This document shows positions 7,610-9,184 of a DNA stretch of 9,745 nt, piece by piece. Location of the stretch: contig CM001047.1 of NCBI GenBank assembly GCA_000183865.1, forward strand, positions 749,291-759,035, given 5' to 3'. Position 1 is the stretch's first letter; each line of letters opens with the position of its first letter. The position numbers were made by a program, and so were the translations under genes. Source of the DNA: Listeria marthii FSL S4-120. Its GTDB lineage: Bacteria; Bacillota; Bacilli; Lactobacillales; Listeriaceae. The notes under the pieces were generated by a model. It did not search any database, was not told where the DNA came from, and saw nothing but the letters and a program-made list of their open reading frames with translations.

Positions 7610-7638
7610 TTGCGAAACAAAAGCGACCATGTTAAACT
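7610..7638 (+). promoter_or_regulatory. Promoter of the hflXr leader
   Basis: TTGCGA (7610-7615) and TAAACT (7633-7638) stand exactly 17 bases apart, a reasonable housekeeping promoter. Transcription should start around 7644-7646. The -35 box begins 11 bases after the flavin-reductase-like gene's stop. An RNA starting here would carry a leader of about 280 bases before the GTPase start codon at 7928. Confidence 0.65.
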
Positions 7639-7640
7639 AG

Positions 7641-7669
7641 GGGCAACTTAAATGAACGGAGGGTTGCCC
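7641..7669 (+). promoter_or_regulatory. 5' hairpin with the leader-peptide Shine-Dalgarno in its loop
   Basis: GGGCAAC (7641-7647) pairs perfectly with GTTGCCC (7663-7669). The 15-base loop holds almost the whole GGAGGG (7658-7663) that serves the leader peptide. If transcription starts at 7644 or later, the stem is a few pairs shorter. The hairpin could stabilise the 5' end or set the basal translation rate of the leader peptide. Confidence 0.55.
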
Positions 7670-7672
7670 ATC

Positions 7673-7717
7673 ATGCGTTATATTAGACTACGTTTCCCAA
7701 AAAATCTATGCAACTAA
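7673..7717 (+). CDS. Leader peptide MRYIRLRFPKNLCN (macrolide-type stalling uORF)
   Basis: A 14-codon ORF with ATG at 7673, stop TAA at 7715-7717, and the strong Shine-Dalgarno GGAGGG (7658-7663) nine bases upstream. Residues 5-9 are RLRFP. The Arg-X-Arg pattern is a known macrolide/ketolide-dependent ribosome arrest motif, and RLRFP is shared with the ErmD leader peptide (MTHSMRLRFPTLNQ, from memory). The uORF lies upstream of an HflX-family gene with several hairpins between. From memory, the L. monocytogenes hflXr gene (lmo0762) is induced by ribosome-targeting antibiotics through such an attenuator, seen as the short RNA Rli80. An in-frame ATG at 7652 would add seven residues but has no Shine-Dalgarno of its own. 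Confidence 0.85.
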   Translation: MRYIRLRFPKNLCN

Positions 7718-7844
7718 TTTAATAGTGCGGGAATATCCATGCTTATTTGGTGTGGATAACGGGATTGGTCTTGCGTGCATGTATGGCACCCAAAATAAAT
7801 ATGGGTAGAATGAAGGGGAAACTCGCTTCATTTGAAGGCAAGCT

Positions 7845-7874
7845 AGTATCTTTTTGATGCTGTTTTTGTGTTTT
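7845..7874 (+). terminator. Candidate attenuator terminator in the hflXr leader
   Basis: AGTATC (7845-7850) pairs with GATGCT (7856-7861, one G-U) over a loop of five T, followed by GTTTTTGTGTTTT. The stem is short and AT-rich, so termination here alone would be modest. It would yield a short RNA of about 220-230 bases. Confidence 0.4.
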
Positions 7875-7892: not shown

Positions 7893-7927
7893 GACCGCGC
7901 TGAATCTATTTCAGGAGGTCCTTTTTT
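7893..7927 (+). terminator. Hairpin masking the hflXr Shine-Dalgarno, followed by a T run
   Basis: GACC (7893-7896) pairs with GGTC (7917-7920), and inside it CTGAA (7900-7904) pairs with TTCAG (7910-7914), with a 3-by-2 internal loop between. AGGAGG (7913-7918), the GTPase ribosome binding site, lies in the 3' arm. Six T (7922-7927) follow directly before the ATG. The element could act as a terminator, a translational block, or both. Confidence 0.45.
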
Positions 7928-9184
7928 ATGGAGAAAAAAGTATTAATCGTTGGCATAAGCCAAAAACAAGCAAATTTTGATTATTCGATGGAAGAACTAG
8001 CCAATTTAGCGGCTGCAAATAATATGGAAGTGGTAGGTGAAATCCGCCAAAATATTGACCGTGAAAATCGCGCTACCTATGTTGGAAAAGGGAAAGTGGA
8101 TGAAATCAAAGGCCTGGCAGAAATGCAGGATGCAGGTTTGATTATTTTTGACGATGAACTTTCGCCGTCGCAAATCAGAAATTTAGAAGAAGCGCTCGAA
8201 CTGGATGTAATGGATAGAACTGGCTTGATTCTGGCTATCTTTGCGAACCGAGCAAAAACAAAAGAAGCCCAACTGCAAGTCCAAATCGCCAAATTGAAAT
8301 ATGAACTTCCGCGGATTTTTGGACAAGGCGAAGATATGGATCAACAAAGCGGAAAAGGCGGGCTTAGCAACCGTGGTTCCGGTGAAAAGAAAATCGAAAC
8401 CGACCGCCGAACAATCAAAAATCAAATCCGTCATTTGCAAAAAGAGCTTGATATGCTCGTAGATGACCGCGAAGTCCGTCGTCGCAAACGGAAGAAAAAT
8501 GAGATTCCAGTGGTGTCGCTCGTTGGTTATACGAATGCTGGGAAATCCACGACAATGAACGGCTTAGTGCGTGCCTATAGTGAAACGGCTGAAAAACAAG
8601 TTTTTGAGAAAGATATGCTCTTCGCTACGCTAGAAACAAGTGTCCGCGAAATTGTATTACCAGATAACAAGCAATTTCTGCTCACCGATACGGTTGGCTT
8701 TGTAAGCAAACTACCGCATCAGCTCGTGAAAGCATTCCGTTCCACACTAGAAGAAGCGCGCGATGCTGATTTGCTCATTCATGTGGTAGATTATTCGGAT
8801 CCGCATTATAAAACGATGATGAAGACCACGGAAGAAACGTTGAAAGCTGTTGGCGTGGAAGATGTTCCGGTTATTTATGCGTATAATAAAGCTGATTTGA
8901 TAGAAGACGAAATATACCCTAAACAAACGGAGAATACGATAGTCTTTTCAGCGCGGGAAGAAGAAAGTTTGGAATTTCTGACAGAAGTGATTCGTAAGGA
9001 ATTGTTCGCCAGCTATGAAAAAGCAACTTTCTTAATTCCGTTTGAAGCGGGGCAAGTTGTCGCTTATTTAAATAATCATGCCGATGTGTTAGAAACCGAA
9101 TACTTGGAAAATGGCACGCAAATTGTTGCAGAAGTAAGCCCGGCAGATTTACAAAAACTAGCCGCATATCACATAGCTGACTAA
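7928..9184 (+). CDS. hflXr: HflX-family ribosome-associated GTPase (HflXr, antibiotic resistance type)
   Basis: A 418-residue GTPase that binds ribosomes and splits them into subunits, rescuing drug-stalled ribosomes. The N-terminal HflX domain (1-180) includes YVGKGKVDEI (51-60) and the loop GLSNRGSGEKKIETDRR (145-161), then a basic coiled coil (about 160-191, ending RRRKRKK). The GTPase domain has G1 GYTNAGKST (200-208), G2 region LFATLET (231-237), G3 DTVGF (254-258), G4 NKAD (320-323) and G5 SA (341-342), all intact. Canonical HflX usually has GPGETQLE where this protein has GSGEKKIE, fitting a divergent second copy, as I recall for lmo0762 alongside the housekeeping lmo1296. AGGAGG (7913-7918) is nine bases before the ATG. 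The leader upstream points to induction by ribosome-targeting drugs. The assignment as HflXr rather than plain HflX rests on this variant motif plus the RLR leader peptide. Confidence 0.9.
   Translation: MEKKVLIVGISQKQANFDYSMEELANLAAANNMEVVGEIRQNIDRENRATYVGKGKVDEIKGLAEMQDAGLIIFDDELSPSQIRNLEEALELDVMDRTGLILAIFANRAKTKEAQLQVQIAKLKYELPRIFGQGEDMDQQSGKGGLSNRGSGEKKIETDRRTIKNQIRHLQKELDMLVDDREVRRRKRKKNEIPVVSLVGYTNAGKSTTMNGLVRAYSETAEKQVFEKDMLFATLETSVREIVLPDNKQFLLTDTVGFVSKLPHQLVKAFRSTLEEARDADLLIHVVDYSDPHYKTMMKTTEETLKAVGVEDVPVIYAYNKADLIEDEIYPKQTENTIVFSAREEESLEFLTEVIRKELFASYEKATFLIPFEAGQVVAYLNNHADVLETEYLENGTQIVAEVSPADLQKLAAYHIAD

What the first reader, a model, noticed from the sequence alone, without database searches (positions are those of the whole stretch)
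7673..7717. ErmD-like RLRFP arrest peptide in front of an HflX-type ribosome-splitting GTPase
The 14-codon uORF reads MRYIRLRFPKNLCN with a strong Shine-Dalgarno. RLRFP matches the macrolide arrest motif of the ErmD leader (recalled), although here the downstream gene is a ribosome-splitting GTPase and not a methylase. This suggests the same drug-sensing peptide was combined with a different resistance mechanism. To my memory antibiotic-dependent attenuation of L. monocytogenes hflXr is published, so the concept is not new. The shared RLRFP-with-Pro arrangement is worth a comparative look.
Basis: partly seen in the sequence, partly recalled or inferred. Interest (0 to 1): 0.8.

Follow-up and report, generated by a model that had tools for sequence, protein, structure and literature searches.

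The report
ErmD-type drug-sensing leader before hflXr
In front of a Listeria gene for a ribosome-splitting resistance protein lies a 14-codon reading frame inside an RNA that matches, in sequence and predicted fold, the leader of the ErmD methylase and of at least five other kinds of antibiotic-resistance gene, so one drug sensor has likely been reused, probably by common descent, for very different resistance mechanisms.

Summary
The uORF is real: MRYIRLRFPKNLCN, 7673-7717, with a Shine-Dalgarno, 210 nt before an HflX-type gene. The locus is published as rli80-hflXr (PMC6310831), with its RLR motif, attenuation and mutants; an RLR-bearing hflX leader motif in Bacillales (uORFC-6-1, PMC8632094) is in print too. 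The arrest motif is R/K-x-R at codons 5-7, kept by 24 of 24 Listeria hflXr loci; FP follows in 15 of 24 and lies beyond the arrest site known for ErmDL. FP codons instead pair with a downstream GGGA in a predicted three-helix RNA. That RNA is the real kinship: a covariance model built from 14 non-hflX leaders (erm, ABC-F, mef, rlmA) finds the window (33 bits, E=1.5e-6) and a leader before a gene labelled ErmD (119.6 bits); a Listeria-only model finds that leader back (42.6 bits). My searches found no paper joining these leaders. Drug arrest and antiterminator pairing in this window are inferred; my antiterminator tests were inconclusive.

The parts
7610..7638 (+). Likely leader promoter: TTGCGA (7610-7615), 17 nt, TAAACT (7633-7638) with TG at 7630-7631
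   Evidence: By eye; TGTTAnnnT is kept in the 24 aligned Listeria loci. 8 of 12 consensus bases, below the threshold of the scan, which did not list it. Inferred.
7658..7663 (+). Shine-Dalgarno of the uORF (GGAGGG)
   Evidence: Sequence; an SD match precedes the uORF in 24 of 24 Listeria loci.
7673..7717 (+). uORF MRYIRLRFPKNLCN; +x+ motif = Arg5-Leu6-Arg7 (7685-7693)
   Evidence: translation of the 14-aa ORF of rli80 in vivo and its need for induction are published (PMC6310831).
7683..7780 (+). Leader RNA of the ErmD type (match to covariance model R1, built without any hflX leader)
   Evidence: 33.0 bits, E=1.5e-6, only match in the window at E<=10.
7685..7690 (+). P1 outer helix, 5' strand AGACUA (Arg5-Leu6 codons), pairs with 7766-7771 UGGUCU
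   Evidence: MFE; RNAalifold on a Listeria-only alignment; family pair counts. Predicted.
7695..7698 (+). P1 inner helix, 5' strand UCCC (Phe8-Pro9 codons), pairs with 7761-7764 GGGA
   Evidence: one search gives the same strands in a slightly shifted register. Predicted.
7704..7734 (+). P2 hairpin holding the uORF stop codon; loop region CUAAUUUAAUAG resembles that of the family
   Evidence: weak helix in the window itself.
7735..7757 (+). P3 hairpin
   Evidence: 5 pairs change on both sides within Listeria, all in this helix.
7761..7771 (+). P1 3' strand GGGAUUGGUCU, inferred to be freed when a ribosome sits on codons 6-7
   Evidence: ACGGGA..GUCU invariant in 18 of 18 aligned Listeria leaders. 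Role as antiterminator: inferred.
7840..7868 (+). Predicted intrinsic terminator hairpin followed by a T-rich stretch (approximate bounds)
   Evidence: -7.3 kcal/mol; the simple scan listed no terminator here. Premature termination downstream of rli80 is published, its coordinate was not available to me.
7893..7920 (+). Hairpin that covers the Shine-Dalgarno of hflXr (GACC..GGUC, CUGAA/UUCAG)
   Evidence: -11.3 kcal/mol; sequence pattern kept in 22 of 23 Listeria loci tested.
7928..9184 (+). hflXr (lmo0762 orthologue), HflX GTPase
   Evidence: TIGR03156 431.9 bits; 96.4% identical to the copy in a named L. monocytogenes record.

Best explanation
The uORF at 7673-7717 and the RNA predicted to fold over it (7683-7780) match the leader of ErmD in sequence and predicted structure, and likely act as the same kind of macrolide/lincosamide-sensing transcription attenuator, here placed before hflXr. 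Without drug the ribosome would pass the uORF quickly, the closing helix P1 (codons 5-6 and 8-9 of the uORF paired with 7761-7771) would form, and a downstream terminator would stop transcription. With drug the ribosome would stall with Leu6 in the P site and Arg7 in the A site, as shown for ErmDL at its RLR; it would cover the 5' strand of P1, the 3' strand would be free to pair with the terminator, and hflXr would be transcribed. In this reading Phe8-Pro9 are kept as RNA (UCCC pairing with GGGA), not as arrest residues. Shown here: uORF, conservation, shared leader architecture by covariance models, gene census. Published for the orthologue: ORF translation, need for the start codon, termination, ribosome dependence. 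Inferred: arrest codon, P1 as the anti-antiterminator, antiterminator pairing, common descent with the ErmD leader.
For: 24 of 24 Listeria hflXr loci keep +x+ at codons 5-7. RNAalifold on a Listeria-only MAFFT alignment (18 of 24 loci) gives the three-helix arrangement; on 14 non-hflX leaders it gives the same. Model R1, built from those 14 (2 erm, 7 ABC-F, 3 rlmA-type, 1 mef, 1 without a clear gene), finds the window, 19 of 23 other Listeria hflXr loci and 13 of 29 non-Listeria hflXr-type loci at E<=5 (17 and 8 at E<=0.01), and none of 7 paralog loci. Model R2, built from 18 Listeria leaders, finds 71 of 100 non-Listeria loci at E<=0.5 (62 at E<=0.01) at the places R1 found; 94 of the 100 had an R1 match, and the 6 without got none. 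Leader before a gene labelled ErmD on a B. licheniformis plasmid: R1 119.6 bits, R2 42.6 bits, E=2.6e-8. Of 89 R1 places, 83 lead into ABC-F 21, Mph 16, Erm 16, HflX 13, Mef 8, RlmA 6, LmrB 3 by BLASTP, and tblastn adds Erm at L197 and RlmA at L161; without the 14 training leaders, 72 of 75. Pair counts on 89 leaders: 90.8% of cells paired against at most 43.3% when slid; 23 of 27 pairs change on both sides; P1 alone 86.0% against at most 45.9%, 8 of 10. Published mutants of the orthologue fit.
Against: With the first 16 nt of the match removed the window keeps only 5.2 bits, E=0.27 in 202 nt: the window's own link rests on P1, the RLRFP codons and a short loop. Within Listeria no P1 pair changes on both sides. 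R1 misses 4 of 23 other Listeria leaders (L017, L019, L022, L023) and finds nothing at E<=0.5 in 80 named HflX loci, mostly distant; R2 finds there only L080 (the same locus as training leader L023) and L082 at E=0.11, and misses L259 and L261 of 11 plasmid loci. My antiterminator duplex tests were inconclusive: 6 of 80 at p<=0.05 and 18 of 80 at p<=0.1, window p=0.124; an earlier version gave 8 and 13 of 82. The counts on A3 lean towards the model, since that alignment was fitted to it. The stretch labelled ErmD is 501 nt, shorter than most Erm frames here, about 250-290 codons.
Confidence: 0.78

Rival explanations
1. Convergence: any +x+ attenuator must put its arrest codons into the closing stem, so hflXr and ErmD leaders look alike in P1 without common descent; only the peptide rule is shared.
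For: Most of the window's score is P1 plus the RLRFP codons; FP is absent from the 9 more distant Listeria leaders; PMC4335068 reports no homology between the mef(E) and erm(K) leader regions apart from the peptide, so peptide-only likeness does occur.
Against: Matches in both directions over the full model length; hflX leaders of other genera score 50-69 bits with a model that saw no hflX (L198 68.8, L203 66.4, L206 64.2, L069 50.3); shared UAAUUNAAUA loop and ACGGGAUNNGUCU in both groups.
Confidence: 0.17
2. The whole RLRFP string, with Pro, is a peptide arrest motif.
For: FP follows RLR in the ErmK and ErmJ leaders (PMC4335068 Table 3) and in ErmDL (PMC10314930), and in 18 of 74 family members with +x+.
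Against: FP is not decoded at the ErmDL arrest; 56 of 74 leaders with +x+ lack FP; the mef(E) leader MTASMRLR ends at RLR and is needed for induction.
Confidence: 0.03
3. The leader RNA binds the drug directly (riboswitch).
For: A conserved, structured RNA.
Against: In the published orthologue, ErmC in the cell abolishes induction by lincomycin and the uORF start codon is needed (PMC6310831, section 8 read).
Confidence: 0.02

Closest known systems
rli80-hflXr (lmo0762) attenuator of L. monocytogenes, Duval et al. 2018 (PMC6310831; passages, and sections 6 and 8 read)
   Same: Same locus: 14-aa ORF with RLR, HflX-type gene downstream, ribosome-dependent attenuation.
   Different: Nothing in the window differs in kind. 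In what I read the RNA is not joined to the ErmD leader (RLR is called a hallmark of macrolide-sensing leaders); its supplementary Table S3 was not open to me.
uORFC-6-1 motif (PMC8632094; passages read)
   Same: uORF with conserved Arg-Leu-Arg and a covarying RNA, primarily upstream of hflX in Bacillales; very probably the hflX part of the family seen here.
   Different: 51 representatives, described as primarily hflX; no tie to erm, ABC-F, mef, mph, rlmA or lmrB leaders in the passages read; its alignment was not available to test.
ErmD/ErmK leader (ErmDL MTHSMRLRFPTLNQ; PMC8298421, PMC4335068, PMC10314930, passages)
   Same: RLRFP; RNA fold (R1 119.6, R2 42.6 bits for the leader before a gene labelled ErmD).
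   Different: Methylase gene; Arg at codons 6 and 8, not 5 and 7; P2 better paired than in the window.
mef(E) leader MTASMRLR (PMC4335068) and MsrD leader (PMC10314930), passages
   Same: Short macrolide-arrest leader with transcription attenuation; mef(E) has +x+.
   Different: The mef(E) peptide ends at RLR; that paper reports no other likeness to the erm(K) region.
tlrB (yxjB) leader of B. subtilis MIIQFIRYR (PMC6851288, passages)
   Same: +x+ arrest shown by toeprint, x in the P site and second Arg in the A site; transcription and translation attenuation.
   Different: Motif at the C-terminus, RYR, tylosin and not erythromycin.

Membership tests
hflXr attenuator (rli80 type) | 14-aa ORF with RLR upstream of an HflX-type gene | tested here: met
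   96.4% identical protein and same peptide in a named L. monocytogenes record.
hflXr attenuator (rli80 type) | Drug-dependent read-through that needs ORF translation | not testable with these tools
   Published for the orthologue only.
ErmD-type leader | +x+ (R/K-x-R/K) early in a short SD-preceded uORF | tested here: met
   Codons 5-7.
ErmD-type leader | Three-helix RNA with arrest codons in the closing helix | tested here: met
   Covariance-model matches in both directions, same arrangement predicted independently. Without its first 16 nt the window does not match.
ErmD-type leader | Drug-dependent arrest with x in the P site and the second Arg in the A site | not testable with these tools
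   Known for ErmDL; inferred here.
ErmD-type leader | P1 3' strand pairs with the terminator 5' arm (antiterminator); my own criterion, not taken from a paper | tested here: inconclusive
uORFC-6-1 motif | Match to its published alignment | not tested
   The alignment is not in the passages I saw; the described features (RLR uORF, structure after the start codon, hflX downstream) agree.
HflX GTPase | Score above the curated TIGR03156 cut-off | tested here: met
   431.9 against 216.75 bits.

The most novel reading that the evidence does not exclude
One portable macrolide-sensing leader RNA, with its +x+ uORF built into the closing helix, has been swapped among at least eight gene classes (Erm, RlmA(II), ABC-F, Mef, LmrB, Mph, HflXr and an SDR oxidoreductase not known to me as a resistance gene) across Bacillota and on plasmids reaching Gammaproteobacteria; hflXr is one client, and new clients of the leader are a way to find undescribed resistance genes.
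Probability: 0.55. Interest if true: 0.8.

Novelty: new member of a known kind. Interest (0 to 1): 0.6.

Why it matters
If right, sensing and resistance are separate modules: one leader RNA serves methylases, ribosome-protection ATPases, efflux pumps, drug kinases and a ribosome-splitting GTPase. That gives a sequence-only way to predict macrolide/lincosamide-inducible genes, including ones with no known resistance role, and offers a reason why residues after the arrest site recur in these leader peptides (they would be RNA stem, not peptide).

Tried and rejected
Considered and rejected: FP as part of the arrest peptide; riboswitch; an Rfam family at the leader. Rfam gave nothing over the leader itself in the window or in the 13 other loci scanned; the nearest is a match below its gathering score (RF03533 SQ1002, 42.4 of 128 bits) to the stretch just after the leader in L044. 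Led nowhere or inconclusive: two versions of an antiterminator duplex test; masking the first 16 nt leaves no significant score; the named-genome scan brought mostly distant HflX proteins, in which R1 found nothing and R2 only L080 and L082; shuffled-sequence odds for +x+ uORFs were too weak to use alone. My first reading of the SDR locus L226 as a false match was dropped.

Full report
What is there. ATG 7673 opens MRYIRLRFPKNLCN, ending at TAA 7715-7717, with GGAGGG at 7658-7663. An HflX-type GTPase of 418 aa follows at 7928-9184. The genome holds a second HflX paralog, 39% identical.

What is known. Duval et al. 2018 (PMC6310831; passages, and sections 6 and 8) describe this locus as rli80-lmo0762, renamed hflXr: a 14-aa ORF with the RLR motif, induction by lincomycin and erythromycin, premature termination, loss of induction when the start codon or the antiterminator is changed, and loss of induction in cells that express ErmC. 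PMC8632094 (passages) describes the uORFC-6-1 motif, 51 representatives mostly in Bacillales, primarily upstream of hflX, with a conserved Arg-Leu-Arg.

RLRFP or RLR. Of 25 Listeria-genus genomes, 24 have an hflXr-type gene (G021 has only the paralog, the copy of G007 is broken). All 24 have an SD-preceded uORF with +x+ at codons 5-7. FP follows in the 15 close relatives; the 9 others read RLRY, RLRT, RLRS or KFRS. In ErmDL the drug-stalled ribosome has Leu7 in the P site and Arg8 in the A site (PMC8298421, passages). By analogy Leu6/Arg7 here, so Phe8 and Pro9 are mRNA still to be read. In the wider family (below) FP follows +x+ in 18 of 74; 14 of the 18 are training leaders picked for RLRFP, and outside them it is 4 of 60. 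The peptide motif is therefore RLR.

Why FP is nevertheless shared. A pattern search for SD-ATG-...-RLRFP in 398 Bacilli genomes gave 19 matches, 3 for the reversed pattern; 15 are short uORFs, 11 of them going on to (T/A)LN. Their downstream genes are erm (2), ABC-F (7), mef (1), RlmA-type (3; L039 by tblastn, its frame being cut by the locus end) and hflXr (the window itself); L033 has no long frame in the 1.5 kb behind it, only ABC-F-like pieces near the end of the locus. The 14 without hflX align over about 94 nt, and RNAalifold gives a three-helix fold: P1 pairs the R-L codons (AGACUN) with NAGUCU and the F-P codons (UCCC) with GGGA; P2 holds the TLNQ codons and reaches the stop; P3 follows. 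The third base of the Leu codon changes with its partner (GC 5, UA 3, AU 3, unpaired 3, of 14). The window folds the same way, and RNAalifold on Listeria leaders alone finds the same arrangement, although inside Listeria P1 varies on one side only. Most of the deeper Listeria leaders keep UUCC opposite CGGGA while the peptide reads RLRS or KFRS; L018 and L024 have UACC, L017 differs. This is why I read FP as RNA stem; it is an inference from pairing and conservation.

Test of kinship. Model R1, from the 14 non-hflX leaders, finds the window at 33.0 bits, E=1.5e-6, and nothing else in it at E<=10. Over 59 HflX loci it gives 32 matches at E<=5: 19 of 23 Listeria hflXr loci, 13 of 29 other hflXr-type loci, 0 of 7 paralog loci. 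Model R2, from 18 Listeria leaders, finds 71 of 100 non-Listeria loci at E<=0.5, 62 at E<=0.01; 94 of the 100 had an R1 match, the 6 others got none. In 87 comparison loci it finds L080, which is the locus of training leader L023 again, and L082, a Paenibacillus hflX leader at E=0.11. A B. licheniformis plasmid carries a stretch labelled ErmD by prediction (501 nt); the uORF before it reads MTHSMRLRFPTLNQ, the published ErmDL sequence, R1 119.6 bits, R2 42.6 bits, E=2.6e-8. Weak point: the window without its first 16 matched bases scores only 5.2 bits, so in the window itself the link rests on P1, the RLRFP codons and the stop-codon loop; hflX leaders of other genera (50-69 bits with R1) bridge the gap.

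Spread. R1 in 398 Bacilli genomes: 90 hits in 82 genomes at E<=0.01. For 89 of the 90 the sequence was read. Tblastn then showed Erm behind L197 and RlmA behind L161; left are L170 (= L033), L226 (an SDR oxidoreductase), L232 (an MFS protein, no uORF called) and L235 (nothing). Family models support the labels, often below the curated cut-offs of narrow families. 74 of 89 uORFs show +x+ (57 RLR); in the other 15 it is absent or no sensible uORF was called. A phylum draw of 398 genomes gave 11 with hits at E<=0.001, 7 of them outside the class; six of those seven precede Mef (1), ABC-F (2), Erm (2) and Mph (1), the seventh is a partial match. Pair counts over the 89: 90.8% of cells paired, at most 43.3% when slid, 23 of 27 pairs changed on both sides; that alignment was fitted to the model. 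Among plasmid records, one leader (L162, before an ABC-F frame that closes after 255 codons) is 90.5% identical to a leader before an RlmA-type gene (H1), 94.1% to that of ErmD (H6), 91.9% before mph (H8) and 91.1-91.2% before mef(F) (H9, H11, H12), over 134-148 nt: near-identical leaders before unrelated genes.

Mechanism. Attenuation by a drug-stalled ribosome is published for the orthologue. From the anatomy I infer that the stalled ribosome covers the 5' strand of P1 and frees 7761-7771 and what follows (including CUUGC, complementary to GCAAG at the foot of the predicted terminator). My tests of that pairing over the family were inconclusive (6 of 80 at p<=0.05, 18 of 80 at p<=0.1; window p=0.124). 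A second gate is suggested by a hairpin over the hflXr Shine-Dalgarno, pattern kept in 22 of 23 Listeria loci tested.

Novelty. The locus, its motif and its attenuation are known. I found no paper joining hflXr, ErmD and the other leaders as one RNA family (searches; open-licence papers only, listings read and passages of eight papers; supplements not open to me). In Rfam 15 no family matched over the leader itself in the window or the 13 other loci scanned.

Noticed in passing
L260:2486-2575 (Latilactobacillus curvatus plasmid), L261:2490-2579 (Acinetobacter variabilis plasmid), L226:2501-2588: The leader RNA (62.0, 58.4 and 38.5 bits with R1) precedes an SDR-family oxidoreductase; the three proteins are 65-94% identical. 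The uORF lacks +x+ (MIDILTLNR in the two plasmids, MNVSYFPRVEQLN in L226). A possible undescribed macrolide-modifying enzyme with a differently tuned sensor.
   Followed up: partly
L258, L261 (plasmid records of Stenotrophomonas rhizophila and Acinetobacter variabilis): The Bacillota-type leader is found on plasmid records filed under Gammaproteobacteria.
   Followed up: partly
window 7893-7920: Hairpin over the hflXr Shine-Dalgarno, pattern kept in 22 of 23 Listeria loci tested, suggests a second, translational gate.
   Followed up: partly
L177, L179, L191: Leaders with the family RNA but a changed +x+: MTHSITLRFPTLNQ (before mef), MTHAMRLHFLTLNR and MTHAMRLYFLPLNR (before ABC-F): natural variants for testing the arrest rule.
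   Followed up: no
L025 (G007): The hflXr gene of this genome is split between two frames with an internal stop, yet its leader uORF is intact (MFSIRLRSVNGISH); decay or assembly error not settled.
   Followed up: no
L060, L065, L066, L071, L077, L078: HflXr-type genes of one family (f10, genomes of about 6-7.5 Mb) have uORFs with RVR or RIR followed by T(L/F)R (such as MIDFIRVRTLRG, MIDYIRIRTLRG), R1 scores 17-27 bits: a divergent branch of the leader.
   Followed up: partly
L254: On a Priestia megaterium plasmid one such leader precedes an RlmA-type methylase followed directly by an Msr-family ABC-F gene: two mechanisms behind one sensor.
   Followed up: no
L044:1616-1833: The stretch after the leader, with two hairpins each followed by T runs, matches Rfam SQ1002 (a C. 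difficile sRNA) below its gathering score (42.4 of 128 bits); a Clostridioides RNA may be a related attenuator.
   Followed up: partly
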